64,000 nt of DNA, taken from Parolsenella catena (GTDB taxonomy: Bacteria; Actinomycetota; Coriobacteriia; Coriobacteriales; Atopobiaceae). The notes beneath the pieces were generated by a model, which worked only from the letters and a program-made list of their open reading frames with translations, did not search any database and was not told the DNA's origin. The stretch's first letter is position 1, and each line of letters opens with the position of its first letter. The stretch is from contig NZ_AP019367.1 in NCBI RefSeq assembly GCF_003966955.1, positions 1,116,001-1,180,000 on the forward strand, written 5' to 3'. Below, one piece after another: positions 37,384 through 63,433 of this stretch. The translations under genes and the position numbers were made by a program.

Positions 37384-37415
37384 GAGGGGCGCCCCGGTCT
37401 CCCGAGGCGCCCCTC
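37384..37415 (+). terminator. Terminator after the MtaR-like gene
   Basis: Ten-bp perfect stem GAGGGGCGCC / GGCGCCCCTC with a 12-base loop, followed by CCTTG. It isolates the regulator gene from the metY transcript. Confidence 0.5.
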
Positions 37416-37430
37416 CCTTGCCAAGTCCAC

Positions 37431-37510
37431 CTACGGCATGACGTTGCCGGCGGCGCAGTAGACCTCGTACCACTCCTTGCGGCTCAGCGGATGGCGTTGA
37501 TGCCCTCGCA
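37431..37510 (-). pseudogene. Relic of an oxidoreductase C-terminus (aldo/keto reductase-like)
   Basis: The minus strand encodes LSRKEWYEVYCAAGNVMP and a stop, which is like the C-terminal end of YdhF-type aldo/keto reductases (…EWY.IY.AA…P). Just upstream the residues GINAIR appear in another frame, suggesting a frameshifted remnant. No start or ribosome site. Family call from memory of the C-terminal pattern only. Confidence 0.35.
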
Positions 37511-37570
37511 TGCAGATAAATTCTCATATCCACACGTTCTTGCCCTCTCACCTGCACGTAACAAAACGTT

Positions 37571-37596
37571 AATACCTACTTTTCCGCTAGGGTATT
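37571..37596. promoter_or_regulatory. Inverted repeat AATACC-N14-GGTATT overlapping the metY promoter
   Basis: Perfect six-base arms flank a 14-base centre; the right arm overlaps the first bases of the -35 hexamer. This is a possible activator/repressor site, though it does not match the MET-box seen before the two downstream genes. Confidence 0.4.
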
Positions 37597-37623
37597 GACG
37601 AGGCCAAGACGCGGTCGTATAAA
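37595..37623 (+). promoter_or_regulatory. Sigma-70-type promoter of the metY leader
   Basis: TTGACG, an exact 17-base spacer and TATAAA, close to the consensus. Transcription would begin near 37630, giving a short 5' end before the leader peptide start at 37664. It is the best promoter in the window. Confidence 0.75.
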
Positions 37624-37663
37624 TTCATCAACACGAAGCGACGGACCCAAGGAGGTGCCCAGA

Positions 37664-37750
37664 ATGACCACGACGACCATGATGATGTGCATGCGAATGC
37701 TGAGCTCCCGGGCACCACAGGAGTCCGCCGGCGCAAACGTCGATTGGTAG
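37664..37750 (+). CDS. Met/Thr/Cys-rich leader peptide of metY, 28 aa
   Basis: Tiny reading frame with a strong Shine-Dalgarno (AAGGAGGTG, six bases before the ATG; the same CCCAAGGAGG context precedes metY). The peptide starts MTTTTMMMCMRM: six Met, four Thr and one Cys in the first 12 codons, then LSSRAPQESAGANVDW. Such runs of the amino acid made by the pathway mark attenuator leader peptides, where a ribosome stalled for charged Met-tRNA (or Cys-, Thr-tRNA) decides the RNA fold. Thr and Met share the homoserine branch point. The codons for Leu13 to Ala17 are part of the antiterminator pairing described separately. Confidence 0.75.
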   Translation: MTTTTMMMCMRMLSSRAPQESAGANVDW

Positions 37751-49420: not shown

Positions 49421-52210
49421 TTACCTCTTGCGGCCGAACATGATCTTGGCCTGGCGCTTCGCCGCGTACTTGAGCAGCGCCGGCACCTTGTTCTCGCTCT
49501 TGACCATCACGGAGCACTCGGGGCGCTCGCGGCGCAGGTGAATGGCGTCGAACGCGCACTTGGTGGTGCACAGGCCGCAGCCGATGCACTTGTTGGGATC
49601 CACGATCGAGGCGCCGCAGCCCAGGCATCGGGCCGTCTCGGCGCGCACCTGCTCCTCGGTGAGGGTCCTCACGTACTCGGAGAACGGGGCGCGTTTCTCG
49701 GCCTCGTGGTCGATCTCGGGCTGCTGGCGGCTGGCGGTGTCATAGGAGCCGAGCTCCGCGTCCGCCTTGTCAAGCTCGCGGTAGCTGCGCTGGTTGCGGC
49801 CGATCGTGAGCGTGCCGCCCTGCACGAAGCGGTGGATGGAGACGGCAGCCTCGTGACCTGCGGCGATGGCATCGATGGCAAACTTGGGGCCGGTGTAGAC
49901 GTCGCCGCCCACGAAGATGTCGGGCTCGGCGGTCTGGTAGGTCTTGGGGTCTGCCACGGCGCCATTGCCGCGTCCCAGCTCCACGGCACTGCCCTCGAGA
50001 AGGCCGCCCCACTCGATGCTCTGGCCGATGGAGAAGACCACCTGGTCCGCCTCGACGTCAATCGTGTCGGCCTCGTCGTACTCGGGCGAGAAGCGACCGT
50101 CCTCGTCGAAGACGCGGGTGCAGCGCTTGAAGCGCACGCCGGCGGCATGGCCGTCGCGCACGAGGACCTCGGCCGGGCCCCAGCCGCACGAGAGGCGCAC
50201 GCCGTCGCTCTCGGCCTCGGCCACCTCCTCGTTGGAGGCCGGCATGATGTCGCGGGTCTCCAGGCACAGCATGTCCACGTTCGCCGCACCCAGACGCGCC
50301 GCCGTGCGTGCCACGTCGATGGCCACGTTGCCGCCGCCCACGACGACGACGCGCCTGCCCACGGCCGGCACCTCAGTACCCGCGAGCTGCGCCTCCGCAA
50401 CGCCGCGCAGGAAGTCGACGGCCACGGAGACGCCCTCGGCATCCTCGCCGGGCACGCCCGCGAGACGGCCGCCCTGGCATCCGATGGCCACGTAGAACGC
50501 CTTGAACCCCTGCTCGCGCAGCTGGGCAAGCGTCACGTCGCGGCCCACCTCCACGCCATAGCGGAACTCGGCGCCCATGGCCTCGATGATGTCCACCTCG
50601 GCCTGGATGACGTCCTTACCAAGCTTGTAGGCGGGGATGCCGTAGGTGAGCATGCCGCCGGGACGCGCGCCTCTCTCGAACACGACGGGCTTGTAGCCAC
50701 GCTCGGCCAGATAGAAGGCGCAGGACAGTCCCGCCGGGCCGGCACCGATGATGGCGATCTTCTCGGTGAAGTCACCCTCGACCTTGGGGCGCACCTGGGA
50801 CGGGATGTAGCGGGTGCTCGCGTCGAGGTCGAGCTGGGCGATGAACTTCTTGACCTCGTCGATGGCGATGGCCTCGTCCACGCGGCCGCGCGTGCAGGCG
50901 TCCTCGCAACGGCGGTTGCAGATGCGACCGCACACGGCCGGCAGCGGGTTCTCGCGCTTGATGAGGGCAAGGGCCTCCTGGTAGCGACCCTGGCTCGCGA
51001 GCTTGAGGTAGCCCTGCACGGCGATGTGGGCCGGGCAGGCAGTCTTGCAGGGGGCCGTGCCGCCCTCGTGGGTCTCGATGCGATTGTCGTTGCGGTAGTT
51101 GGGGCTCCACTTCTCCGGGCCCCACTTCACGGTGTCGGGCAGCTCCTGGCGCGGGTACTCGGGCACCTTGCCGCCCGCCTTCTTGGAGCACAGCTTCTGG
51201 CCGAGTTTGGCGGCGCCGGCCGGGCACACCTCCACGCAGCGTCCGCACGCCACACAGCTCTTGGCGTCAACGTGGGCCACGTAGGCAGAGCGCGAGAGGT
51301 TGGGCGTGTTGAACAGCTGCGAGGTGCGCAGGGCGTAGCACACGTTCACGTTGCAGTTGCAGATGGCGAAGATCTTGTGCTCGCCGTCGATATTGGTGAT
51401 CTGGTGAACGAAGCCGTTGTCCTCGGCGCGCTGGAAGATCTCGAGGGCCTCCTCGCGCGTGATGTAGCGGCCGCGGTTGGTCTCCACGACGTAGTCGGCC
51501 ATGTCGCCCACGGCGATGCACCAGTCGTTGAAGTCATCTCCGCAGCCCTCGCCCATGCGCTGGCGACTCATGCGACAGCTGCAGGCACTCGCGGCGTATT
51601 TGCCGTCGTACTTGTCGAGCCAGTGCTTGATGTGCTCGATGGAGATGGATTGGTTCTCGTGCTCGATGGCGCGCTCGACGGGAATGACGTGCATGCCGAT
51701 GCCCGCGCCTCCGGGCGGCACGAGCGGCGTCGCACGGGAGAGCGGTCCCTTCGAGGCCTGCTCGAAGAACTTGGCGAAGACCGGGTGCTCCTCGAGCTGG
51801 CTCCAGCGCATGTTGAGGAACTCCGCCGATCCCGGCACGAGCATGGGGAGGACCCACTGCTTCTCATGCTGGGGATTCTCCCAGTTGTATTCGAGGAGGC
51901 CCACGTAGGAGACCTCGTCGAGCATGGGTTCGAGCTTCTCCGGCGGGATGCCCGTCGCCTTGACAGCGGCCTCGAGCGTGCAGGGCACGCGGACCTTGAG
52001 CTTGACGAGCATGTCGGCCTGCTCGTCGGTGGCCGCCTCGGCGAAGCTCCAGTACTCGTAGGGCAGGAGCTCGTCCTTGCCGAGGATGCGGTTGGTGCAG
52101 TGCTTGCAGAGGGCCACGATGCTCGGGCGCGGGTTGTCGGGAAGCTCGGGGACGAACTCGGATCCGATGTCAGGCTCGGTGTAGGAAATGCCGGGGCCGT
52201 TAATGATCAT
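49421..52210 (-). CDS. Multidomain Fe-S/FAD NAD(P) oxidoreductase, 929 aa
   Basis: Modules in order: a helical N-terminal region with a Cys cluster (ACSCRMSRQRMGEGC) and ICNCNVNVC; a ferredoxin domain (CVACGRCVEVCPAGAA); a GltD-type cluster domain (GTAPCKTACPAHIAVQGYLK, CGRICNRRCEDACTRG); FAD domain (IAIIGAGPAGLSCAFYLAERGYK); NAD(P) domain (VVVVGGGNVAIDVARTAARLG); C-terminal ferredoxin (CIGCGLCTTKCAFDAIHL). It resembles GltD/NfnB flavoproteins that bind FAD and NADPH and could move electrons between ferredoxin, NAD(P)H and a hydrogenase. Placed between hypB and hypA, it may serve hydrogen metabolism (inference). ATG 52210 has GGAGGA upstream; the GTG two codons earlier is too close to it. Confidence 0.88.
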   Translation of the reverse strand: MIINGPGISYTEPDIGSEFVPELPDNPRPSIVALCKHCTNRILGKDELLPYEYWSFAEAATDEQADMLVKLKVRVPCTLEAAVKATGIPPEKLEPMLDEVSYVGLLEYNWENPQHEKQWVLPMLVPGSAEFLNMRWSQLEEHPVFAKFFEQASKGPLSRATPLVPPGGAGIGMHVIPVERAIEHENQSISIEHIKHWLDKYDGKYAASACSCRMSRQRMGEGCGDDFNDWCIAVGDMADYVVETNRGRYITREEALEIFQRAEDNGFVHQITNIDGEHKIFAICNCNVNVCYALRTSQLFNTPNLSRSAYVAHVDAKSCVACGRCVEVCPAGAAKLGQKLCSKKAGGKVPEYPRQELPDTVKWGPEKWSPNYRNDNRIETHEGGTAPCKTACPAHIAVQGYLKLASQGRYQEALALIKRENPLPAVCGRICNRRCEDACTRGRVDEAIAIDEVKKFIAQLDLDASTRYIPSQVRPKVEGDFTEKIAIIGAGPAGLSCAFYLAERGYKPVVFERGARPGGMLTYGIPAYKLGKDVIQAEVDIIEAMGAEFRYGVEVGRDVTLAQLREQGFKAFYVAIGCQGGRLAGVPGEDAEGVSVAVDFLRGVAEAQLAGTEVPAVGRRVVVVGGGNVAIDVARTAARLGAANVDMLCLETRDIMPASNEEVAEAESDGVRLSCGWGPAEVLVRDGHAAGVRFKRCTRVFDEDGRFSPEYDEADTIDVEADQVVFSIGQSIEWGGLLEGSAVELGRGNGAVADPKTYQTAEPDIFVGGDVYTGPKFAIDAIAAGHEAAVSIHRFVQGGTLTIGRNQRSYRELDKADAELGSYDTASRQQPEIDHEAEKRAPFSEYVRTLTEEQVRAETARCLGCGASIVDPNKCIGCGLCTTKCAFDAIHLRRERPECSVMVKSENKVPALLKYAAKRQAKIMFGRKR

Positions 52211-52298
52211 AGTCACTCCTCCGGGTTGGGGCGTAAGAGGCGGATCTGGGAGACGGACGGACGCGCGCGGGCGTACGGATGCAGGCGCAGGCCCGCCG

Positions 52299-53072
52299 TT
52301 ACTCGCCTGGATAGTGCGGGGCCTCGCTGTTGGCCGGCGTGGCCTTCTCGAACGTGCCGGTCTTCCATGCGGCGACGGCGGCGCGCAGCCATGCCGCCCA
52401 CGCGCCTGTGCCCTCCCCCGTCTTGGCGCTCATCGGGATGACCTTGGCACCCGGGTTTCGCAGGTGCACGTTCTCCTCGCAGCGTGTGAGGTCGAAGTCG
52501 AAGTACGGCGCCACGTCCATCTTGTTGACGAGGACGACGTCGCAGACCTCGAACATCAGCGGATACTTGAGGGGCTTGTCATCACCCTCCGGCACGGAGA
52601 GGATCGCGACGTTCACGCTCGCGCCCGTATCGAACTCCGCCGGACACACGAGGTTGCCGACATTCTCGAGAATCGCGAGGTCAAGGGGAGCCGTGCCCGC
52701 GGCCTCGGCTGCGGCCTCGAGCTCCGCGAGGCCCTGGCGGCACATAGCGGCGTCGAGGTGGCACATGCCACCCGTATGGAGCTGGATCGCCGTGACACCC
52801 GTCGCGGCCATGGCGCGCGCGTCGACGTCTGAGTCGATGTCCGCCTCCATGACGCCGATGGAAAGGTCGCCGGCAAGGGCCTCGATGGTGCGTGCGAGCG
52901 TTGTGGTCTTGCCCGAGCCGGGGCTGCTCATCAAGTTAAGCAGGAAGGTCTTGCGAGCACGGAGCTCGTCGCGGAGAGCGTCCGCCGCGCGGTCGTTGCT
53001 CGCGAACACACTCTGTTTGACCTCGATGACGCGGACTTCACGCTCGTGCGCGTCCTTCTCGGTATCTTCCAT
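52299..53072 (-). CDS. hypB: Hydrogenase nickel incorporation GTPase HypB, 257 aa
   Basis: GTPase that drives nickel insertion. SSPGSGKTTTLARTIEAL is the Walker A, MCHLDAAM supplies the Cys and His of the dimeric metal site, ENVGNLVCPAEFDTG and LVNKMDVAPYFDFD are conserved family elements. There is no His-rich nickel-storage tail. ATG 53072 has GAGGGGAG. It opens a minus-strand group hypB, Fe-S oxidoreductase, hypA, which is followed by gltBD. Confidence 0.94.
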   Translation of the reverse strand: MEDTEKDAHEREVRVIEVKQSVFASNDRAADALRDELRARKTFLLNLMSSPGSGKTTTLARTIEALAGDLSIGVMEADIDSDVDARAMAATGVTAIQLHTGGMCHLDAAMCRQGLAELEAAAEAAGTAPLDLAILENVGNLVCPAEFDTGASVNVAILSVPEGDDKPLKYPLMFEVCDVVLVNKMDVAPYFDFDLTRCEENVHLRNPGAKVIPMSAKTGEGTGAWAAWLRAAVAAWKTGTFEKATPANSEAPHYPGE

Positions 53073-53197
53073 GTCTCTCCCCTCGTAAGCCACGCTCATC
53101 CCCATGGGCATATGCGGGTGATTTACATAATCTAATTGAGTGTACAGGGGCAGGCGACTCACGCCCGCAGGCAATCGCCAGACGGCAGAGACATAAA

Positions 53198-53232
53198 TTG
53201 CCCGCCCCGCGCACGCGCGAGGCGGGCAACAT
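53198..53232 (-). terminator. Terminator downstream of the lipoprotein gene
   Basis: TTGCCCGCC and GGCGGGCAA arms enclose a CGCG-rich loop and are followed by TTTATG on the minus strand. It lies about 30 bases past the lipoprotein stop and about 125 bases ahead of the hypB start. Confidence 0.65.
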
Positions 53233-53260
53233 GTCACATAGCTTGGACAATCAATACAGG

Positions 53261-53794
53261 CTAGCTTTCGAAAACCGTAAGCTCCGAGCCATCCTCCTCC
53301 TTAATCACTAAGGTGCTAAGGACCTTCGTAACAGTAGAGTCATCTTTGCCATTAAACGTTGTCGTAAACACACAGTAATACGAATTGTCTTCAAAGACGG
53401 AGGCCAAGATGCCAGAACCAGTCTTGTCTTTCGTTGTACATTGATAGACCTTAAGACCATTCTGGTTATCGGTCTCCTCGAGCTCACCGACCGTGGCGTC
53501 CGAATTTGAAGAGACACCCGAATAAATAGCCCGGGCAACCAATTCACTATCCAAGTTGGCCGAGAATGTGGTTTTGCCGACAGCCATTATTATTCCATCG
53601 TCAGAACCCCACGTCACGGAGTTGTTACCGTTATCCACCTGCATCTTCCATCCGTCTGGATGCTTGATAGCGAAATCTAGAGCCTCTTCTTTTGTCCAAT
53701 TCGCAGTCTCATCAACGCTCCCACAACCGTCCAGCAAGATTGTTGCAGCAGCAATAGATACAGACGCGAGAAAATCTTTTCGAGAAAGTTACAT
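53261..53794 (-). CDS. Lipoprotein-like gene with a stop at codon 2 (ATG TAA)
   Basis: A lipoprotein signal peptide is readable as LSRKDFLASVSIAAATILLDGC, with the lipobox Cys and a 150-residue mature part (GSVDETANWTKEEALDFAIKH..., ending LTVFES). The only ATG with a ribosome site (GAGAGACGAG, minus strand) is at 53794, and the next codon is TAA (53791-53789). The third codon and all later ones continue the protein. A single base change of Gln or Lys codon to TAA would explain it, so I regard the gene as disrupted, or the sequence as in error. TTG at 53737 would make a 158-aa protein without its signal. Family unknown; more A/T-rich than the neighbours, and co-directional 15 bases after the Ltp gene. 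Confidence 0.55.
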
Positions 53795-53808
53795 ATCTCG
53801 TCTCTCTT

Positions 53809-54828
53809 CTACAAACCAGCAGCGCTCACACCATGCTCAGCCTGCTCAGTCGTAAAGCCTTCGTACTCGAGCTGATCGACAAGACCCGAGTGAGAGAATC
53901 CCATGAGACTCAGATAACTTTGGGCTTTCCTCTCAGCCTGAACGTTCCAGTCTGCCCCGCAGTTATCCGCTGCAAACGTGGCGTCATCAGTCGAGTAGCC
54001 CTCGTATTCGAGCTGCTCAACAAGGCCCCTGTGTGAGAAAGCCATCGTATTGAGATAACTCTGAGCCTTTCGAAGGGCGTTCCTCTGCGAGGTGGTCGCC
54101 TCAAGCCTGTACGTCTCCGTGTCGATTACAGCTCCACACACTGTGCATGAGCGGGTTCTTACTCCCGCCGTTATCGAACCGTCCGAAGAGACCGTTGAAG
54201 GAGTTGTTATCTCCCAATCGCCGGGAGTGTGATCAAGCTTGGGAAGTGACTTCGTCTGCTTCTCGCCACATCGAGTGCAAACGCCTTCACTGATTCCAGT
54301 TGAGCTACAAGTCGCCTCTTTTACGATTGTCCATTCGCCGACCTCATGGCCGAGCGCGCTGCCCACTGTTTCGCCACAGCGCTTGCACGTCTTGGGCTCA
54401 GTACAAGTTGCCTCAGCATAGTCGTGGCCGAGAGGCTCGCCCTCGGTCTCCTTGCATTTCTTACACGTCTTAGGTTCAGTGCACGTCGCCTCTTGCCAGT
54501 CATGACGACAAGGAAGTAGAGAAATACCTATGAGAAGCACAATTACGGCAGCAATAACACCTCCGATTATCTTAGCTTTCTTATCAATTGGCTTCTCGTC
54601 AGAATCGGAAGATTCCGTTTCATCCGAGACCTGTTCCTCAGCTGACGTAGCATCTTCAGGCTTCTCATTGGATTCTATTTCTGGAACATCGTTAGCATTG
54701 CCATCAGATTCAGACGAATCCGTTGACTCGGATTCAGAGGTGGCTAATTCGGCCTTAGCCTCACTGGGCTCCGAGTCGTGTCCATCTTCAAGAGTCTTAT
54801 CAATCTCGTCGTCAGTTCCGCTACTCAT
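53809..54828 (-). CDS. Membrane-anchored Ltp-domain protein with Cys repeats, 339 aa
   Basis: Residues 1-85 are acidic and Ser/Glu-rich (disordered). Residues 87-105 are one transmembrane helix (IIGGVIAAVIVLLIGISLL) and no lipobox. Residues 107-240 hold four Cys-rich repeats (HDWQEATCTEPKTCKKCKETEG; HDYAEATCTEPKTCKRCGE; VCTRCGEKQ; SCTVCG) like those of Gram-positive surface proteins. Residues 250-339 are two Ltp repeats (ALRKAQSYLNTMAFSHRGLV and RKAQSYLSLMGFSHSGLV), the fold of the phage superinfection-exclusion lipoprotein Ltp, which blocks phage DNA entry. The role here is therefore a phage-defence candidate (inference). A/T-rich compared with neighbours; ATG has GGAGGGG. Confidence 0.8.
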   Translation of the reverse strand: MSSGTDDEIDKTLEDGHDSEPSEAKAELATSESESTDSSESDGNANDVPEIESNEKPEDATSAEEQVSDETESSDSDEKPIDKKAKIIGGVIAAVIVLLIGISLLPCRHDWQEATCTEPKTCKKCKETEGEPLGHDYAEATCTEPKTCKRCGETVGSALGHEVGEWTIVKEATCSSTGISEGVCTRCGEKQTKSLPKLDHTPGDWEITTPSTVSSDGSITAGVRTRSCTVCGAVIDTETYRLEATTSQRNALRKAQSYLNTMAFSHRGLVEQLEYEGYSTDDATFAADNCGADWNVQAERKAQSYLSLMGFSHSGLVDQLEYEGFTTEQAEHGVSAAGL

Positions 54829-55521
54829 ACAACCCCTCCAGCCATAGGAAATGGAGAACCTTTAGCATCCTTTAAGGTTCGGTAACAAAGAACCTACCCC
54901 CCCCCAGGCCGAATAGGTCAATAGCAGAAGTCCCCTTATTCGACCAACGGGGCAGTTCGTTAATAAGTCCTAAGACGCAAAAGGGCCCATCCCGCGTGAG
55001 AAACGCGGACGAATCCGAATAGCCGACAAAGGGACTGTCCCTTTGCCATGCGGTGCACCACATCGCAGCCGAGTGCTCACGACAGCCGCGCGCACAAACC
55101 TGCACGCATAGGAGCGCTAAGAGCACAGAATGCAGGCTTGGCCCGCGCGACGTAAATCCTTGGCGGCCTTTTGACATAGTTACGGGGCGTGACGGCGTTT
55201 AAGCGCGCGAAAAGCCGCCACGGTTTGCCGGGGCGCTGGCCACACGCCTCAAGCGATGCGCTTAGCGGGTGCATGCGCGCCGAAAAGATGCCGGCATCCG
55301 AGAGGTCGAGAACGCCGTCGCGAAACATCGCGCTTAGCCGCCCTAAGCGTGGCAAATGCCCGCACGCGCCCATCCACACGCGCCCGGCAGCCCGCACACC
55401 CGCATGCACCCGCACACCCACCCGCGCGCCGAGAATGGCGAGCTTGGGACACGTGACCCACCCACGGTCGCGTATCCTAGAAGTACCGGAGATGCATGAG
55501 TCTCGCCATGGGGAGGTGCCG
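54829..55521. other. Long intergenic region with repeats, no gene seen
   Basis: 693 bases between the Ltp gene and the signalling operon. The first part is A/T-rich with a run of nine to ten C (about 54898-54907). Next come a hairpin CCGCG/CGCGG (about 54990-55006) and a REP-like palindrome (55027-55045). The rest to 55440 is G/C-rich with short repeats of GCGCTTAG/CTAAGCG and CGCAC-rich tracts. No frame has codon use, ribosome site and length of a gene. Confidence 0.55.
55027..55045. repeat. REP-like palindrome CAAAGGGACTGTCCCTTTG
   Basis: Perfect seven-base arms around the five-base centre ACTGT. Same family as the copies at 28832 and 63351. Confidence 0.7.
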
Positions 55522-57300
55522 ATGGCCAGCCCAATCAAGTCGGCAAGAAACCTAGCCCGCAAGCGCGGGGTCTTCGTCGTCTGTGGCGCGATCGCCGTCG
55601 TGTTCCTCGCCCTCGTCATCGCCGCCATGGCCTTTGCGGGGCCGCCCATTCCCCCGGTTCCGCAGGGCAACGTCCAGTTCAGGTGGATGGGAGACCGTGC
55701 GGTCTACATGCGCATCGCGAGTTCGGCCTTCTCGCTCTGGGGAGTCTCCGCCTATCTCCGTTGCCTCGACCGCAAGAACCGCATCTACCTCGCTGGCATC
55801 GCGGTCTTCCTCGTATTTTGGATGCTCGACGCCATCATCAAGTGGAAGACGCACAGCCTCTGGCTCGGCATTTTCTGCTGGTACTTCTACTACGTCCCCA
55901 TGACGGTCATCCCGCTGCTCACCCTGCTGATTGGCGGGCGCGCCGCGGGCCTCGACCGCTCCCCCGCCGCCCGTAACATCAAAAACGGCCTCATTGCCCT
56001 CGCCTGCGCCCTCATCGTGCTCGTCTTCTCCAACAACCTCCATCAGCTCGTCTTCTCGTTCGACTCGCCTAACCCGGGCGTAGTGGGTGAGTATGAGTAC
56101 CGCGGCGGCTACTGGCTCTTTATGATCTGGAACGTCCTCTGCTACGCCGGCTTCTTCGTCTGCCTCGCCCGCGCGTCGCGGAAGCACCTCCGTACATTCA
56201 TCGCCATCATCGTGGGCGTCTTTCTTGTCGGCGTACTCTACATGCTCGGTTACGTGTTCCGCCTCCCCTTCGCAATGCGCCTCAACTTCTCGCTCGTCTA
56301 CGCCTTGCTCGTAGTGACGGCCCTCGAACTCTCACTCGACCTCGGGCTCATTCCGTCCATGGTCAGGTTCGATAAATCCTTTGCGAAGATCCCCCTTGAC
56401 CTGCGCATCGTCGACCTCGACGGCAAAACCTACCTCGCCACAACTAAGGCGGAGTCCGTCCGGCGCGACACCGTCCGCCACCTGCTCGAAGAACTCGCCA
56501 AGAACAAGGGCGACGGGGCCGTCTCCATACGAACGGGCGAGCACGAGGTCACGAGGGTCTGGCCCATTTCGGGCGGGGCCGCAATTCTCGCGCAGGACGT
56601 CAGCGGTCTTGACCATGTCCATGCCGAGCTCGAGCAGGTCCACGCGGAGCTCCTCCGCGACAGCGAGGTGCTTGGCGCCCAAGTGCAGGTTGCCAAGGCC
56701 CTCGCCGGCGTAGAGGCAGAGCGCAAGCTCGTCGATGAGATCGAGGCGGCTCTCGCCACGTCCCTCTCACGGGCAGCGAGAATCCTGGACACGCTTCCAG
56801 AGGGTCCCGGCCACGACGAGGAACGCCGGCGCGAGGTCGAACGGGCACGCATGCTCGTCGCTTATAGCAAGCGCAAAGGCTCCCTTGTCCTTTCAACCAG
56901 CGAGGATCCCGAGCTCAACCGAGACCGCATCGTCCTCATCGCCAACGAGCTCGCGAGCGACCTGCGCGCGGTCGGCATCGACTGCGCCGCCGCCGTCGAT
57001 CTTCCCCATGCCCTCGCCACGAGCGAGATGAGCACGCTCTATGACTGCATCTATGACTTCGCCTACGTTGCGCTCGACACGAAGAAGCCCAGCCTGCTCT
57101 ATCGCCTTGGCACTCGCCCCGACGGAACGGCGGAGCTCCGCGCGGTGCTCGAGTCTGACGATGATGACGACCTCCTGGCTCGACCCCAGGCGGTCGAGCT
57201 CGAGCGCACCCTCGAGGCACGTGACGTGATCTTCGTCCTTTCCGGTGACGCCGGCGAGCTCAGGCTCGTCGCGAGGGTCCGCTTGGGAGATGACGCATGA
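55522..57300 (+). CDS. Multi-helix membrane sensor-like protein, 592 aa
   Basis: N-terminal half has about seven to eight hydrophobic helices (for example VFVVCGAIAVVFLALVIAAMAF and IYLAGIAVFLVFWMLDAII) in a 7TM-type layout. It continues as a long soluble region with a coiled-coil stretch (LDHVHAELEQVHAELLRD) and ERKLVDEIEAALATSLSRAARILD. There is no His-box or ATPase domain, so it is not itself a kinase. ATG 55522 has GGGAGG five bases upstream. The stop overlaps the following histidine kinase start (ATGA), so it probably detects a signal for that kinase (inference). No family recognised. Confidence 0.8.
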   Translation: MASPIKSARNLARKRGVFVVCGAIAVVFLALVIAAMAFAGPPIPPVPQGNVQFRWMGDRAVYMRIASSAFSLWGVSAYLRCLDRKNRIYLAGIAVFLVFWMLDAIIKWKTHSLWLGIFCWYFYYVPMTVIPLLTLLIGGRAAGLDRSPAARNIKNGLIALACALIVLVFSNNLHQLVFSFDSPNPGVVGEYEYRGGYWLFMIWNVLCYAGFFVCLARASRKHLRTFIAIIVGVFLVGVLYMLGYVFRLPFAMRLNFSLVYALLVVTALELSLDLGLIPSMVRFDKSFAKIPLDLRIVDLDGKTYLATTKAESVRRDTVRHLLEELAKNKGDGAVSIRTGEHEVTRVWPISGGAAILAQDVSGLDHVHAELEQVHAELLRDSEVLGAQVQVAKALAGVEAERKLVDEIEAALATSLSRAARILDTLPEGPGHDEERRREVERARMLVAYSKRKGSLVLSTSEDPELNRDRIVLIANELASDLRAVGIDCAAAVDLPHALATSEMSTLYDCIYDFAYVALDTKKPSLLYRLGTRPDGTAELRAVLESDDDDDLLARPQAVELERTLEARDVIFVLSGDAGELRLVARVRLGDDA

Positions 57301-58766
57301 TGCCCGGTGTCTTCAACGAGACATCCCTGCTCCTGCTCTTCGTGGGTAGCTTCATCAGCTGCTGCCTCCAGCTCGTCCACGTCCCCCTCACCGCAGCCGG
57401 ACGCAACCGCCGCCTCGCCCTCATCGGCCTCTTCTACGAGTTAGGCGTCGCGAACCACCTCTTCCTCGCGGCGGACTACATGATTGGCGTCCTCTCGAAC
57501 ACAGGCACCTTCGCGGCGGACACGATCCTCGCATCCCAATGGGGTCACTTCCTCTGGGGCAATGTCATCACCGTGACATACGGCATCGCCTTTTGCATCT
57601 ACCTGAAACATCCGGTGATGATTCCGGAGATAACGTTCATGGCGCTCTGTACGCCACCCGCGCTCAGACTTCTCGGCCCAAGTTGGACCATCGTCGCGAT
57701 TCTTGACGTGGCGTACTTCCTGTTCAGGACCACCGCGGCGATCTGCGTCGACGCCATCCGCCGCACGGAAAAGCTCTCGAAGCTCTCCGTCATCGAGGCC
57801 GTCAACGTCATTCCGGTGGGCATCCTCGCAACAGAACACCGATCAGCTTCCGCGCTTATGAACAACACCATGCGAGACACGCTCGGCATTCTCAATCTCC
57901 CGACCGACCTTGGAGACCTTAGTGACATGTGGGAGCGCCTCGACCGCGTTGCGGAGCCCCTTCGCGCCATCGCGAATTTGCAGGGAATCCCGCTGCTTTC
58001 AGGCGAGGGAAACGAGAAGCTCCTCATTCGCCTCCCCAACGATACGTACAAGCTCTTCACTAGGGAGATATTAGAGAATGGCGAGAGGCACATGACGCTC
58101 GCGCTCGATGTGACCGACCTCGCCCTTGCCAACCGCAATCTCTGGCGGGCAAACCTCGACCTCAAAGATGCAACCGAGGCCATTCGGGAGCAGATGTCGC
58201 TCGTCGGCCTCGTCGCCGAGGGAGAGGCGCACCTAAAGATGCGAGCCCGCGTCCATGACGTCGTTGGCCAGCGTCTCTCCATCATCCACCGCTACCTCGA
58301 AGAACAGCGCATCGACAACACCTCCGTCGCGGAGCTCAAGGAGCTCATCGCCACGGTCATGAATGACCTGCGCGGGGATGCCGGGGATGCCAGCACCGCC
58401 CTCGCCGCCGTCGTCTCCGCGTTCGCCCTCGTGGGCGTAGAGATCGAGGTCACAGGCGAGCTGCCCACAAACCCTCGGGTGGCGGCGACACTCGTCGACG
58501 TCATCCGCGAGACGGCAACCAACGCCTGCAAGCACGGCCATGCCCACACGGTCGAAATCCAGCTTGGGCGCAAAGAGGCCTCGCACGGCGCCCACTACGT
58601 CACGCTCGTTGCGCATGATGATGGCGACGGCATGGCAAAGAACGCGGACATCACGAGCGGCACAGGCATCACGGGCATGAGGCGCGCCGTCGAGTCCCTC
58701 GGCGGGTTCCTCGAAATCGCGAGCAAATCCCCCTTCGTTATCAATATCGGCATTCCCGAGAGGTGA
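57297..58766 (+). CDS. Sensor histidine kinase, HisKA_3-like, 489 aa
   Basis: Residues 1-155 carry about six helices. A linker follows, then the dimerisation/phosphoacceptor segment MRARVHDVVGQRLSIIHRYLEE (His320) and a GHKL ATPase with ETATNACKHGHAHTV (N-box near residue 409) and DDGDGM (G-box). The order HD-xx-GQ is that of the NarX/DesK group, which partners LuxR-type regulators. Such a regulator follows at once. Signal unknown. The first ATG lies in the overlap with the upstream gene. Confidence 0.9.
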   Translation: MMPGVFNETSLLLLFVGSFISCCLQLVHVPLTAAGRNRRLALIGLFYELGVANHLFLAADYMIGVLSNTGTFAADTILASQWGHFLWGNVITVTYGIAFCIYLKHPVMIPEITFMALCTPPALRLLGPSWTIVAILDVAYFLFRTTAAICVDAIRRTEKLSKLSVIEAVNVIPVGILATEHRSASALMNNTMRDTLGILNLPTDLGDLSDMWERLDRVAEPLRAIANLQGIPLLSGEGNEKLLIRLPNDTYKLFTREILENGERHMTLALDVTDLALANRNLWRANLDLKDATEAIREQMSLVGLVAEGEAHLKMRARVHDVVGQRLSIIHRYLEEQRIDNTSVAELKELIATVMNDLRGDAGDASTALAAVVSAFALVGVEIEVTGELPTNPRVAATLVDVIRETATNACKHGHAHTVEIQLGRKEASHGAHYVTLVAHDDGDGMAKNADITSGTGITGMRRAVESLGGFLEIASKSPFVINIGIPER

Positions 58767-58770
58767 TTAC

Positions 58771-59400
58771 ATGGAAACCATTGGCGTGCTGATCGTCGAG
58801 GATCAGGCGATGCTCAGGGAAAGCCTTGTCTCCACCATCGATTCCCAGCCAGACATGCATGTCGTCGCCTCGCTCGCAGACGCCGCGGAGGCACCCGCCT
58901 TCGTTGCCAGGGACGGCGTTGACCTCGCCCTCATGGACGTCTGCACCGAGAATGACTCGAGCGGCATAGTGGCAGCCAAGCGCATCAAGCAAGACTCCCC
59001 CAAGGTGCGCGTCGTCATCATGACGGGCATGCCAGACATCACCTTCGTCGAACAGGCGCGTGACGCTGGGGTCGACAGCTTCGTGTACAAGAACGTTGGC
59101 ATCTCGGAGCTACTCTCCGTGATGCGCTCCACGGACTCCGGCTACTCGACCTTCCCCAAGGCTCCGGATTCCGTCTTCTCCGGAAGCGCGGCCCTCACGG
59201 ATGAGGAGATCCAGATTCTTCGCCTTGTCTGCGAGGCCAAAAGTCGCAAGGAGATCGCCAGCGAGCTCTACATGAGCGAAGGCACGGTCAAGCGTCGCAT
59301 CGGCGAAATCCTCGCCAAGACGGGCTATGACAACATCCTCCGCCTCGCCGTACATGCCGTGGCGGAGGGCTCCATCGTCCCGCGCATCGGCGACAAGTAG
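58771..59400 (+). CDS. Response regulator, NarL/LuxR type, 209 aa
   Basis: Receiver domain (IGVLIVEDQAML, phosphoacceptor Asp56 in LALMDVCTE, VVIMTGMP, FVYKNVG) and a LuxR helix-turn-helix (LTDEEIQILRLVCEAKSRKEIASELYMSEGTVKRRIGEIL). The start is four bases after the kinase stop and has GAGAGG upstream. Receiver and output domains are complete. The target genes are not visible in the window. Confidence 0.94.
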   Translation: METIGVLIVEDQAMLRESLVSTIDSQPDMHVVASLADAAEAPAFVARDGVDLALMDVCTENDSSGIVAAKRIKQDSPKVRVVIMTGMPDITFVEQARDAGVDSFVYKNVGISELLSVMRSTDSGYSTFPKAPDSVFSGSAALTDEEIQILRLVCEAKSRKEIASELYMSEGTVKRRIGEILAKTGYDNILRLAVHAVAEGSIVPRIGDK

Positions 59401-59432
59401 GAGCCGGCACCACGTGGCCAGCGCATAGAAAT

Positions 59433-59463
59433 GGGGCCGGGACACTCGAAGCGTCCCGGCCCC
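59433..59463. terminator. Terminator between convergent genes
   Basis: Eleven-bp perfect stem GGGGCCGGGAC / GTCCCGGCCCC with a nine-base loop between the response regulator and a lipoprotein gene. T runs are weak on both sides (TCGTT downstream). Confidence 0.65.
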
Positions 59464-59508
59464 TCGTTCATGACTTAGCTCACGAACGGACGGCTATCGC
59501 ACGAAGAG

Positions 59509-60345
59509 CTACATGACGACGGTGCTGTAGCTGCAGATGTCGTCATAGGACTCGGTATAGTAAAGGCCGAGGTTGAGGGTGATGTTGACGAGCTGGTCAA
59601 CAGAGGTGATGCCGTCATAGCTGAGTTCGGTGGTCTTGGTCTCTCCGGGCGCCAGGCTGCAGCTGAACCAGGCCTCGTGCTCGACGTCGTCGACGTAGTT
59701 CATGCCGGTAGGCGAATAGAGCGTGACGTTCTCGTTGGAGTTGTTCCTGACGGAAATGACAAGACCAACGTAGCCGTACTCGTCAGCGTACTTCGCGTCG
59801 ACCGTGGCGGTGATCCACTCGTCATCAGCGATGGTCTGGACGGGATCGAGGGGGATCATGGCAGGCTCGACGTCAGAGTCCGTGGTGGAATCGGTGCCGC
59901 TGCGAGTCATGTTGGAGCGATCAGCCTCGATGATGGAAGCAAGGTCGGTCGAGTCGCCCTTCTTGAACTTGATGTGATCCGATCCGTCAGCGATGCTCAT
60001 GGTGTCACCATCAAGCTTGAACTCGACGCTCTCTCCCTCCCATTCCATGGTCTTGGCCTTGGCGTCCCATGTGGCATCGTAGACGTCGCCGAACATGTCC
60101 ACCTCGCACGTACCGTCCTCGGCGAAGTGGATGATCATGTGAGCATCCCAGTCCTTCATCATCTGGATAAACTCGTCATCGAGCTCTTCGCCTTCGAGGG
60201 TGCCGCCGGAAAGCTCCCAGTAGCCGACAAGCTTGGACTCAGCGGAGCCACCACCGCCGCCGCAGCCCACAAGGGCGAGGCACATGGTGAGCATGAGCGC
60301 GATGCCAACGAGCATCCTTCGCCAGAGGTTCGCCGTCTTCTTCAT
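59509..60345 (-). CDS. Predicted lipoprotein, 278 aa
   Basis: MLVGIALMLTMCLALVGCGGGGG is a lipoprotein signal peptide with lipobox LVGC. The middle KLVGYWELSGGTLEGEELDDEF to VEFKLDGDTMSIAD resembles small secreted beta-domains common in Coriobacteria, and the C-terminal part (WITATVDAKYADEYGYVGLVISVRNNSNENVTLYSPTGMN) is like a bacterial Ig-type fold. Function unknown. ATG 60345 has AAAGGA. It lies near the SPFH/zinc-ribbon genes, which point the same way. Confidence 0.85.
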   Translation of the reverse strand: MKKTANLWRRMLVGIALMLTMCLALVGCGGGGGSAESKLVGYWELSGGTLEGEELDDEFIQMMKDWDAHMIIHFAEDGTCEVDMFGDVYDATWDAKAKTMEWEGESVEFKLDGDTMSIADGSDHIKFKKGDSTDLASIIEADRSNMTRSGTDSTTDSDVEPAMIPLDPVQTIADDEWITATVDAKYADEYGYVGLVISVRNNSNENVTLYSPTGMNYVDDVEHEAWFSCSLAPGETKTTELSYDGITSVDQLVNITLNLGLYYTESYDDICSYSTVVM

Positions 60346-60455
60346 GTCTTGTCCTTTCTCCCGCTTGCTTTGCTAGTCGTCTCTCGGCGCCTGCCCGGGC
60401 GCGGGTGCGGAAGGGAGGCACGAACGCCCCGCGCCCGAAGCAGACGCTTATGCCA

Positions 60456-61742
60456 CTACGGTTTCGGCGTACCGCAGCTCATGCAGAAGTTGCCGGAGTT
60501 CTTCGTGCCGCAGGACGGGCAGTACCACTCGGCAGAAGCCTGGGGGGCAGCTGGGGCTGGCTTGGGAGAGCCGCACGTTGGGCAGAAGTTACCCGTGTTG
60601 ACAGCACCGCACGAGCAGGTCCAGGAACCGGCAGGAGCACCACCGGCGGCGACAGCCGCGCCCGCCATACCGGGAGCTGCCTGAGCGGGGGCCTGCCGCA
60701 TCGGGGCCTGCTGAGCCGGCATCTGGGCCGCCTGCTGCTGACCCTGGGCAAACAGCTGCGCGGCGTTCATGCCGCCCATGCCACCCGCCATACCCATGCC
60801 CATGAAGCCCATGGCGGCACCGGCAGGGTTCGCCGCAGCGGTGCGCATGGCGTCGCTCTGGGCGGCCGCGATGTTTGCGGCGGCCATAGTCGGGTTGGCC
60901 ATGACGGCAGCCCTCTGGAGATCACGAATCATCTGCTCCTGGTCCTCAGGGGCGCTGATCGTGTTGACGCCAAAGGCGGCGACCTCGATACCGCGACGAT
61001 CGCGCCACTCGTAGCTGAGCTCCTCGTTGAGGGCGGCAGCGAGCTCCTTGGTGTGAGCCGGAACCGCGCTGTAGCGAATGCCCATCTCGGAGATACGCGC
61101 GAAGGCGGGCTGGAGCGCCGTCAGCAGCTCGCTCTTAAGCTGTGAGTCGATCAGGTCACGCGTGTAGACGGTGTCAACGTTGCCACAGACGTTCTTGTAG
61201 AACATCAGCGGGTCGACGATCTTGTAGGAGTACTCGCCGTTGCAGCGGACCGTGATATCGACATCGAGACCAATCTTGTCGTCAACGACGCGGAACGGCA
61301 CGGGACTCGCGGTACCGTACTTGTTGCCGATAATCTCCTTGGTGTTGAAGTAGTAGATGCGCTGGTCCTTGCCAGTGTCACCACCGAAGGAGAAGCGCTT
61401 GCCGACTTCCTGGAAGCTCCTCTTGATGTTCTCGCCGAGATTACCCGTGAATACGGAGGGTTCGGTGCCGGTGTCATAGACGAACTTACCCGGCTCGGAG
61501 CAGACGTCGACGATGGCGCCGTCCTCGACGATGATCATGCACTGGCCATCAGCCACGGCGACGATCGAGCCGTCAGAGATGATGTTCTCCTCACCATGCT
61601 TGTTACTGCTGCGGTTACCCGTGCGCTTCTGGCCCTTCGCGGCGAGCGTGTCAGCATCGAGGGCCTCACAGTAGAAGTACTCGCGCCACTGATCGGCAAG
61701 AACGCCAGATGCCGCACCGATACCAGCCTTAAGAAGTCCCAT
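60456..61742 (-). CDS. SPFH-domain protein with C-terminal zinc ribbons (YdjI-like), 428 aa
   Basis: Residues 20-240 are a stomatin/prohibitin-type SPFH domain of the virion-core-protein-like group (ISDGSIVAVADGQCMIIVEDGAIVDVCSEPGKFVYDTGTEPS; VPFRVVDDKIGLDVDITVRCNGEYSYKIVDPLMFYKNVCG). A Met/Ala/Gly/Gln-rich linker (FMGMGMAGGMGGMNAAQ) leads to two zinc ribbons at the C-terminus (CSCGAVNTGNFCPTCG; CPSCGTKNSGNFCMSCG). The partner gene encoding a TFIIB-like zinc-ribbon membrane protein lies upstream, the usual pair. These pairs may sort membrane cargo or form envelope microdomains, but a function is not established. Confidence 0.85.
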   Translation of the reverse strand: MGLLKAGIGAASGVLADQWREYFYCEALDADTLAAKGQKRTGNRSSNKHGEENIISDGSIVAVADGQCMIIVEDGAIVDVCSEPGKFVYDTGTEPSVFTGNLGENIKRSFQEVGKRFSFGGDTGKDQRIYYFNTKEIIGNKYGTASPVPFRVVDDKIGLDVDITVRCNGEYSYKIVDPLMFYKNVCGNVDTVYTRDLIDSQLKSELLTALQPAFARISEMGIRYSAVPAHTKELAAALNEELSYEWRDRRGIEVAAFGVNTISAPEDQEQMIRDLQRAAVMANPTMAAANIAAAQSDAMRTAAANPAGAAMGFMGMGMAGGMGGMNAAQLFAQGQQQAAQMPAQQAPMRQAPAQAAPGMAGAAVAAGGAPAGSWTCSCGAVNTGNFCPTCGSPKPAPAAPQASAEWYCPSCGTKNSGNFCMSCGTPKP

Positions 61743-61859
61743 GGTGTTTCCTTTCTCGAAGTGGCGAACGTGGTGGAGCCGGTTGGCGCGCGCACCGCGG
61801 GGCACGGCCGTTATGTACGTGCTGGAGCCGATCGAATGCGTGTCGCAAAGACGCTGCTG

Positions 61860-63137
61860 CTACTTCTTCTTCTCGTGGTGGATAACCTGCGTCGTGGTGT
61901 GCGTGTAGGTATCGCTCTGGGAGACAAGCTGGAAGGTGCCCCGGTCAAGGTAGTTATCCGCCTGACCAGCCTCAATCGCGCTCTTCATCTGCCCCACGAG
62001 GACAGCGCCGACGATGACGGTGATGATGACAGGAATGAGGACGATCATCGCAAGGCCCCAAAGCGGGTTATCGGACTCCATGACGGAGGCGCCGTCCATG
62101 CCGACCCACAACCCACCGAAGAGCACGGCGAAGACAACGGCGCAGATAGCGATGAGCTTGGGCTTGGAGATGGGAAGATCGCCCACGAGGCGCCCGGTCT
62201 GACCATTCATCGCGAACAGGAAGTTCTGCCCCTCCCAGCTCGTGCTCAGCATCCACACCGGAAACAGGGCGCACCTCTCGTCGTGCCAGCCGCAGTCGAC
62301 GTTAGAAGACGTGCAGTCGACCGTGGCATAACCGGTCACGGTCTCGCCGAGGGCGTTCTCGACGCTCTTGGTGACGCGATGCTCCGCGCGGCAGCGGCAC
62401 GCATCGACGTCCTCGTCCCAGCGATTCGCCAGGAAGCCAGGAAGGTAGGCAGAAGAATAGGTAACCAGAGACTGGTAGTCATACGGCTCGATGGAATCCA
62501 TGTGGCCGTCAGGCATACGCGTGGAACCATCGACGGGAATGAGCGTGAAGGCCATGGAGCCAGAGCGCTCGCAGGTGTAGTGGTCAGTCTCGATGATCTC
62601 GTCGTCACCGCGCATATAGCTGCGGGTATTGGTTGCCTCAAACGTGGCACTGCCGTTGGCGTTGGAGTCGTAAAGCCAGAAGGGCACGTAGACGCCCTGG
62701 ACCTCGTCGATGTGGTTGCCCGTCTTGAACTCGCGCGGAAGGAGGATCTTGCCCTTGTAGTGCTCGTCAAGGGCGGCGACGGCAGCCTTGTGATCAAGCT
62801 TGAAGGGAATGACGAGGTCAGGCTTGAAGTCACCCGTAAAGGTGGCTGCCTGCATGGTCTGGTTGCCGCAGTAGGGGCAACGAGAGACGGCAACGGTGCC
62901 GTCAGTCATGAGCTGGGCGCCACACGACGCGCAGACATAGCCGCCGTCAAGCGTCTGGGCGCCAGCACCCGCCGCCCGCTCCTCCGCCTTGGCCTCGGCG
63001 GTGGCGAACATGGCCTCGATCTGCGCAACCTCGAACTCGGAATCGCAATGGTCACAGACGAGCTTGCCCTTGCCGCCGTCATAGCGCAACGGACCCCCGC
63101 ACGCCGGGCACTGGTAGTTGACGCTCTCGAGCCCCAT
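61860..63137 (-). CDS. Zinc-ribbon membrane protein, partner of SPFH protein, 425 aa
   Basis: Two N-terminal zinc ribbons (YQCPACGGPLRYDGGKGKLVCDHCDSEF; CASCGAQLMTDGTVAVSRCPYCGNQ) precede a large soluble region (FKPDLVIPFKLDHKAAVAALDEHYKGKILLP; VYVPFWLYDSNANGS) and two helices near the C-terminus (LIAICAVVFAVLFGGLWVGM; LWGLAMIVLIPVIITVIVGAVLV). This is the TFIIB-type zinc-ribbon group that accompanies YdjI-like SPFH proteins. ATG 63137 has GGGAGG eight bases upstream; earlier in-frame ATGs lack one. The gap to the SPFH gene is about 120 bases, so one transcript is likely. Confidence 0.85.
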   Translation of the reverse strand: MGLESVNYQCPACGGPLRYDGGKGKLVCDHCDSEFEVAQIEAMFATAEAKAEERAAGAGAQTLDGGYVCASCGAQLMTDGTVAVSRCPYCGNQTMQAATFTGDFKPDLVIPFKLDHKAAVAALDEHYKGKILLPREFKTGNHIDEVQGVYVPFWLYDSNANGSATFEATNTRSYMRGDDEIIETDHYTCERSGSMAFTLIPVDGSTRMPDGHMDSIEPYDYQSLVTYSSAYLPGFLANRWDEDVDACRCRAEHRVTKSVENALGETVTGYATVDCTSSNVDCGWHDERCALFPVWMLSTSWEGQNFLFAMNGQTGRLVGDLPISKPKLIAICAVVFAVLFGGLWVGMDGASVMESDNPLWGLAMIVLIPVIITVIVGAVLVGQMKSAIEAGQADNYLDRGTFQLVSQSDTYTHTTTQVIHHEKKK

Positions 63138-63304
63138 ACTTGCCTCCCTGCCTACAGGTTTGACTATGAAAGCGATGCCGCGGGCACAACGCCCGATCCC
63201 TTTCACCTAGGATTCTGATTCCTCGGAAGACACAATCACATGCCCACAAGGCCCCTTGCGAGCCACGGTTTGGGACAAATGGCCCAAACCGAAATCCGTC
63301 CGAC

Positions 63305-63341
63305 AAAAAAGCCTGCCCCGCGCGAGAAACGCGAGGCAGGC
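63305..63341 (-). terminator. Terminator downstream of ppc
   Basis: On the minus strand GCCTGCC(TCGCG) and (CGCGG)GGCAGGC form the stem, TTTCT the loop, and TTTTTT follows. It lies about 90 bases after the ppc stop. Confidence 0.75.
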
Positions 63342-63350
63342 CTGGAAAGT

Positions 63351-63375
63351 TGACAAAGGGACTGTCCCTTTGTCA
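63351..63375. repeat. REP-like palindrome, 10-bp arms around ACTGT
   Basis: TGACAAAGGG on each side (inverted) around the centre ACTGT. It is the longest and most perfect of the GGGACTGTCCC family, placed between the ppc stop and its terminator. Confidence 0.7.
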
Positions 63376-63433
63376 CCCGCCGGCAGCGAGTGCTACCGGC
63401 GGGCATGGTTGCGATAGAGCTATAGCCTGGACA

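What the first reader, a model, noticed from the sequence alone, without database searches (positions are those of the whole stretch)
53261..54828. A/T-rich island with a membrane-anchored Ltp protein, a candidate phage-exclusion element
The Ltp domain is known from the prophage TP-J34 lipoprotein that prevents phage DNA injection. Here two Ltp repeats are joined to a single transmembrane helix (not a lipobox) and four Cys-pair repeats, with a following lipoprotein. The region is visibly richer in A and T than the genes around it, which suggests transfer. Function as defence is inference.
Basis: partly seen in the sequence, partly recalled or inferred. Interest (0 to 1): 0.6.

Follow-up and report, generated by a model that had tools for sequence, protein, structure and literature searches.

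The report
Membrane-anchored Ltp phage-exclusion candidate gene
A gut-type actinobacterium carries a horizontally acquired surface protein whose tip has the fold of a known phage-DNA-injection blocker, held out on a new kind of membrane anchor and cysteine-rich stalk; it is probably a phage shield, but this is untested.

Summary
The protein is real and correctly read. ORF 53809-54828 (-) has two PF07553 repeats, an acidic disordered N-terminus, one transmembrane helix and a Cys-rich stalk. The modelled tip superposes on the TP-J34 superinfection-exclusion protein (4eqq, 1.0 A over 94 columns). GC is 52% and GC3 0.52, against GC3 0.79-0.94 in nine neighbouring genes. A sister genome joins ppc to hypB directly and lacks all of 53235-63430. 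The same TM-Cys-Ltp architecture is patchy: 7 of 140 family genomes, at no other ppc-hypB site, and AT-richer than its surroundings in 6 of 7. Horizontal acquisition is well supported.

Phage exclusion is likely but inferred. The closest phage Ltp domains (62-65% identical) lie beside an integrase. One relative lies beside CRISPR-Cas9, another beside a methyltransferase fragment.

Two claims fail. The "following lipoprotein" has ATG followed directly by TAA, and no relative among 396 class genomes besides its own. Nothing marks a prophage or integrase-bearing element here. Verdict: new architectural variant of a known exclusion domain.

The parts
53809..54828 (-). ltp: 339-aa protein, acidic disordered N-terminus + one TM helix + Cys-repeat stalk + two Ltp repeats
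54577..54828 (-). codons 1-84: acidic (30 D/E, 6 K/R), Ser/Glu-rich, predicted disordered, probably cytoplasmic
   Evidence: side of the membrane inferred
54511..54564 (-). codons 89-106: transmembrane helix (anchor); no lipobox
   Evidence: helix 89-103 in the model; sequence read directly
54109..54510 (-). codons 107-240: four Cys repeats, beta-hairpins, probable zinc knuckles (zinc inferred)
53812..54102 (-). codons 243-339: two Ltp repeats, pI 4.57, fold of 4eqq
53261..53794 (-). orphan frame with a lipoprotein-like N-terminus; ATG directly followed by TAA; probably not translated as a lipoprotein, or decayed
53197..53230 (-). 15-bp-stem terminator-like hairpin at the island/hypB boundary; counterpart in the sister genome
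   Evidence: two terminator-like sites against 2.4 expected in shuffles, so the count itself is not above chance
54897..54905 (-). G9 tract about 70 bases upstream of the ltp ATG
55028..55044 (.). REP-like palindrome AAAGGGACTGTCCCTTT between the AT-rich island and the neighbouring block
63355..63371 (.). second copy of the palindrome, just downstream of ppc
53235..63430 (.). 10.2-kb stretch absent between ppc and hypB in the sister genome G001
55495..63206 (.). neighbouring block, not part of the ltp unit: membrane protein, histidine kinase, LuxR-type regulator (+), lipoprotein, SPFH/Band 7 protein, zinc-ribbon membrane protein (-)

Best explanation
A horizontally acquired, membrane-anchored surface protein that blocks phage DNA injection in the way of TP-J34 Ltp. 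A single TM helix holds it in the membrane with the acidic tail inside. The Cys-repeat stalk carries the two Ltp repeats outward through the wall. The acidic Ltp tip meets the tape-measure protein of an incoming siphophage-like tail and stops the DNA channel from forming. Shown here by computation: fold, architecture, foreign composition, absence from the sister genome, patchy distribution. Inferred: orientation (from relatives with a lipobox on the same stalk and tip), zinc binding, the tape-measure target, and the defence role itself.
For: Pfam PF07553 96.9 bits, two stretches. AlphaFold pLDDT 90 or more for 213 of 339 residues, block means above 90 over most of 110-339. Foldseek best match 4eqq, TP-J34 Ltp, rmsd 1.0 A, target TM 0.86; VIA-align Z 17.1 over 96 residues; phmmer 5.3e-10. 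PHROG superinfection exclusion 1.4e-34. Acidic tip, pI 4.57, against 4.73 for the 4eqq stretch shown. The best phage hits (64.6% and 62.5%): in MT837517 a tyrosine recombinase follows the Ltp gene. An E. callanderi plasmid has HTH regulator - Ltp - serine recombinase. A relative in G026 lies beside serine recombinase pieces and a MobC gene; one in G146 beside a CRISPR array with Cas9, Cas1 and a Cas2-like ORF; one in G009 beside a 3' fragment of a C5 methyltransferase. Foreign composition and absence from the sister.
Against: No phage test. PADLOC gave no family for the protein and no convincing one for the other seven block proteins. No prophage or integrase nearby. The IMG/VR scan for the Cys-Ltp architecture found no relative among 29 pattern matches, so phages carry the tip but this stalk was not seen in them. 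Defence genes lie next to only 2 of 6 relatives and no background rate was measured. The stalk also carries an unrelated C-terminal domain in other proteins, so the stalk says nothing about defence. CbpL shows that an Ltp domain on another anchor can be tied to another role.
Confidence: 0.6

Rival explanations
1. A general modular surface protein (adhesion, wall or host contact) that has borrowed Ltp repeats as a protein-binding tip, as suggested for pneumococcal CbpL; no role against phage.
For: The Cys stalk is shared with proteins that end in a different domain and with lipobox-anchored proteins of gut Firmicutes; CbpL has an Ltp domain without lipobox and a role in infection models (PMC5137146, passages).
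Against: The two-repeat tip keeps the TP-J34 fold and acidity and a nearest phage version sits beside an integrase.
Confidence: 0.22
2. A decaying leftover of a mobile element: once an exclusion gene, now kept by chance beside a broken partner gene.
For: The downstream frame has ATG-TAA and no relatives; related loci also show breakage: recombinase pieces in separate frames in G026, a methyltransferase fragment in G009, an in-frame TAG in G153.
Against: The 339-codon ltp frame itself is intact and its fold and Cys/His positions are conserved.
Confidence: 0.12
3. A zinc-holding or zinc-sensing surface protein: the Cys/His repeats are the working part and the Ltp tip only a partner-binding module.
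For: Cys and most His positions of the stalk are invariant in 15 of 15 aligned proteins with different C-termini.
Against: No metal gene identified in the block; metal binding untested; the stalk occurs with several tips, which fits a support role.
Confidence: 0.06

Closest known systems
Ltp of Streptococcus thermophilus phage TP-J34 (PDB 4eqq)
   Same: Two helix-turn-helix repeats, acidic, at the C-terminus of a membrane-anchored protein; modelled fold rmsd 1.0 A
   Different: TP-J34 Ltp is a lipoprotein with a serine-rich spacer, in a prophage (PMC3952083, passages); here a TM helix with an 84-residue inner tail and a Cys-repeat stalk, outside any recognisable prophage
CbpL of Streptococcus pneumoniae
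   Same: Surface protein with a C-terminal Ltp domain and no lipobox (PMC5137146)
   Different: A shorter Ltp domain (48 aa), held by choline-binding repeats with an Excalibur domain in front; no TM-Cys stalk
Ltp proteins of gut phage contigs MT837517/MT838898
   Same: 62-65% identity over the two repeats; hydrophobic N-terminus without an obvious lipobox; next to a tyrosine integrase in MT837517, integrase-like ORF also next in MT838898 (read from sequence)
   Different: Middle part is a copper-amine-oxidase N-terminal domain in MT837517, not the Cys stalk
Cys-stalk proteins with another C-terminal domain (e.g. L050, L051, L052, L055-L058)
   Same: Same stalk, with TM or lipobox anchor
   Different: C-terminal domain unrelated to Ltp; the one tested (L052) had no Pfam match over cut-off and no NCBIfam match

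Membership tests
Ltp domain (Pfam PF07553) | Score above the curated cut-off | tested here: met
   96.9 bits against 23.2, two stretches
Ltp superinfection-exclusion lipoproteins | Two helix-turn-helix repeats | tested here: met
Ltp superinfection-exclusion lipoproteins | Acidic pI of the repeat domain | tested here: met
   pI 4.57 for residues 243-339; feature as listed in PMC5137146
Ltp superinfection-exclusion lipoproteins | Lipobox cysteine (lipid anchor) | tested here: not met
   84 hydrophilic residues precede the helix; the residue before C107 is Pro (sequence). Filed as an Ltp-domain protein, not as an Ltp lipoprotein
Ltp superinfection-exclusion lipoproteins | Membrane-anchoring N-terminal region (wide sense) | tested here: met
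   TM helix predicted; anchoring itself inferred
Ltp superinfection-exclusion lipoproteins | Serine-rich spacer between anchor and repeats | tested here: not met
   Cys-repeat module instead
Ltp superinfection-exclusion lipoproteins | Binds tape-measure protein and blocks DNA injection | not testable with these tools
   needs a bench assay
Prophage or integrative element at this site | Integrase or phage genes in the inserted stretch | tested here: not met
   the eight frames of the block were given to Pfam (two calls), PADLOC and NCBIfam: none is an integrase or phage structural gene
Known defence system (PADLOC) | PADLOC model match | tested here: not met
   0 families for ltp and the downstream frame; only weak matches (E 6e-5 to 0.009) to the generic regulator, SPFH and zinc-ribbon proteins

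The most novel reading that the evidence does not exclude
A family of stand-alone, non-prophage phage shields in gut bacteria: one Cys-repeat stalk with swappable anchors (TM helix or lipid) and swappable tips (Ltp repeats or another, unnamed domain), moved between chromosomes and sometimes parked in defence islands, each tip meant for a different part of the injection machinery.
Probability: 0.18. Interest if true: 0.65.

Novelty: new variant of a known kind. Interest (0 to 1): 0.4.

Why it matters
Ltp-type exclusion is described from prophage lipoproteins. A TM-anchored, stalked version outside prophages, recurring at different sites in Coriobacteriales, would extend it to a host-owned defence in a group whose phage biology seems little studied (one paper held Olsenella, phage resistance and superinfection together). 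The stalk's exchangeable tips suggest where to look for further injection blockers.

Tried and rejected
Prophage or integrase-bearing island: no integrase, phage gene or tRNA. Two-gene exclusion operon: the second frame has no usable common start with a signal peptide and no relatives besides itself; its single-sequence model is poor (mean pLDDT 43.6) and was not used. RNA element: no Rfam match in 52000-56500; the leader folds no better than shuffles (z 0.30). Phase variation by the G9 tract: seven tracts of nine or more G in the genome; the six others, read in 3-kb stretches, include sites by housekeeping genes, so it is not special to ltp. Inverted AGGTTC/GAACCT motifs in the leader were seen and not pursued. 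RecX resemblance (Z 8.7) is taken as a shared helical arrangement. Other rows for the Cys stalk are too weak to name a fold. Kinship of the neighbouring two-component block with ltp: different GC3 (0.79-0.82) and bracketed by palindromes, so treated as separate.

Not done: background rate of defence genes near random genes; tree of Ltp domains; within-species comparison (only one other genome of the genus appeared among those held).

Full report
WHERE. The window is 1116001-1180000 of a single-contig 1.80-Mb genome. Named relatives (Parafannyhessea, Atopobiaceae, Coriobacteriaceae MAGs) place it among Coriobacteriales; the organism itself is not named by any search. On the minus strand the order is ppc (named from its sequence, recalled), a 10.2-kb stretch, then hypB.

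OBSERVATION. The 339-aa frame is intact. It has two PF07553 repeats, an acidic tail (30 D/E and 6 K/R in residues 1-84), one TM helix, four Cys repeats and an acidic tip of pI 4.57. The Cys positions 116, 122, 125, 142, 148, 151, 174, 184, 187, 228 and 231 and His 109, 135 and 200 are invariant in 15 of 15 aligned proteins, which are the window's and 14 that I chose from the 79 loci. Gene GC is 0.523 against 0.666 for the rest of the window, and no 1020-base stretch outside the island in 79 kb is below 0.587. GC3 is 0.524 (ltp) and 0.511 (downstream frame), against 0.79-0.94 in nine neighbours.

THE SECOND GENE. Reading back from 53261 the frame begins M-stop-LSRKDFLAS.... The listed ORF starts at a TTG inside the would-be lipobox. 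No relative besides itself was found in 60 relatives, 396 genomes of the class, plasmids or phages. I do not count it as part of a working pair.

TRANSFER. In the one genome of the same genus that was held (G001, matched stretches 88-94% identical), ppc and hypB are separated by a short sequence; the alignments end at window 63431 and 53234, with 23 bases between them in G001. A search of G001 with 55200-60400 found nothing (no positive control). The G001 junction carries a sequence resembling the palindrome that the window has at 55028 and 63355. That palindrome is dispersed: 37 exact strand matches of a shortened pattern in G000 and 16 in G001, mostly as overlapping pairs, with none for the reversed control. 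In G001 two copies (37229 and 38086) flank a Y1 transposase match at 37386-37715, as in REP/RAYT elements (recalled). The two window copies bracket the block holding the two-component genes, so the AT-rich island and that block look like separate arrivals at one REP-marked site. That history is inference.

DISTRIBUTION. Of 140 family genomes (own included) 19 match at E <= 1e-30. Seven have matches over both stalk and tip: G000, G026, G030, G088, G009, G153, G146. Their ORFs were read. In 6 of 7 the gene is AT-richer than the rest of its locus; G153 is not (0.628 against 0.632). From the ORF lists, none of the six relatives lies between ppc and hypB, and G030 and G088 seem to share one site. 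G005 and G157 have the stalk with another C-terminal domain. In the Firmicutes loci L049 and L059 the same stalk and tip follow a lipobox-like N-terminus, which is the main reason to place the tip outside the cell.

CONTEXT OF RELATIVES. G146: the gene is followed by a CRISPR array, a Cas1, a Cas2-like ORF and a Cas9 (HNH_4, RuvC_III). G009: an 81-aa 3' fragment of a C5 methyltransferase lies upstream, after a gene that reads like a GH1 glucosidase. G026: serine recombinase pieces in separate frames on one side and a MobC-family protein on the other; the large protein next to MobC looked like a relaxase to me but had no family match. G030, G088 and G153: no defence gene noticed in the ORFs read (only selected proteins were given to Pfam). 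No background rate was measured, so 2 of 6 is suggestive only.

PHAGES AND PLASMIDS. The protein matches 136 of 50,697 phage records and 26 of 72,556 plasmid records, never over 80% of its length; all 20 phage rows listed cover only the tip region. The best phage records (64.6%, 62.5%) were read: in MT837517 the Ltp gene is followed by a tyrosine recombinase; in MT838898 an integrase-like ORF follows (read by eye). An E. callanderi plasmid has HTH regulator, Ltp lipoprotein, serine recombinase. A scan of IMG/VR with patterns from the stalk gave 29 pattern matches and no relative.

STRUCTURE. The model made from 15 sequences has mean pLDDT 79.3, with residues above about 110 mostly over 90. Its tip matches 4eqq: Foldseek rmsd 1.0 A, 34% identity; VIA-align Z 17.1, rmsd 1.1 over 96 residues. 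The stalk is a chain of beta-hairpins without a convincing named fold. BFVD matches with E <= 0.001 are mainly phage 'host cell surface-exposed lipoproteins'.

LITERATURE. PMC3952083 (abstract and passages): Ltp of TP-J34 is a prophage lipoprotein with a serine-rich spacer and a repeat domain that stops DNA injection by acting on the tape-measure protein. PMC5137146 (passages): CbpL, an Ltp-domain protein without lipobox, which the authors call unique in this; it contributes to infection. PMC11480721 (outline with abstract): a Cutibacterium phage gene with Ltp-like signatures. Bebeacua et al. 2013 was seen only as cited there. No paper describing a TM-anchored, Cys-stalked Ltp protein turned up in the listings; that is a limited search of open papers.

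MECHANISM. Most likely the tip blocks phage DNA entry, as TP-J34 Ltp does, held by a TM helix and carried outward on the Cys stalk. Shown by computation: fold, charge, architecture, foreign origin. Inferred: outside location, zinc, target, function. The main rival is a surface protein with another partner (CbpL-like).

VERDICT. New variant of a known kind: an Ltp-domain protein that fails the lipobox and Ser-spacer features of Ltp lipoproteins, but may well work like them.

Noticed in passing
window 55028-55044 and 63355-63371; G001:C1:37229-38102: Dispersed REP-like palindrome AAAGGGACTGTCCCTTT; in the sister genome two copies flank a Y1 (RAYT-like) transposase, and in the window two copies bracket an 8.3-kb block absent from the sister.
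   Followed up: partly
G000:C1:746150-746590 (L001-L003): A second Ltp protein of the same genome with three repeats and a hydrophobic N-terminal helix, near an HTH protein and a protein-kinase-like ORF.
   Followed up: no
L143 (G146:C4:174000-192000): An Atopobiaceae CRISPR array with Cas9 (1014 aa), Cas1 and a Cas2-like ORF directly next to a stalked Ltp gene, all AT-richer than the flanks.
   Followed up: partly
L047/L142 (G153), L044 (G009), L145 (G030), L141 (G088): A coiled-coil domain is fused in front of the TM-Cys-Ltp part in G009, separated from it by an in-frame TAG in G153, and a similar-looking protein is encoded just upstream in G030 and G088 (similarity judged by eye).
   Followed up: no
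L174 (G001:C1:1498500-1503500), positions 2176-2400: Several very long poly-C runs (10, 24, 22, 8 and 15 bases) close together; microsatellite or assembly artefact.
   Followed up: no
window 54897-54905: The only G/C run of seven or more in 79 kb, upstream of ltp; seven runs of nine or more in the genome.
   Followed up: partly
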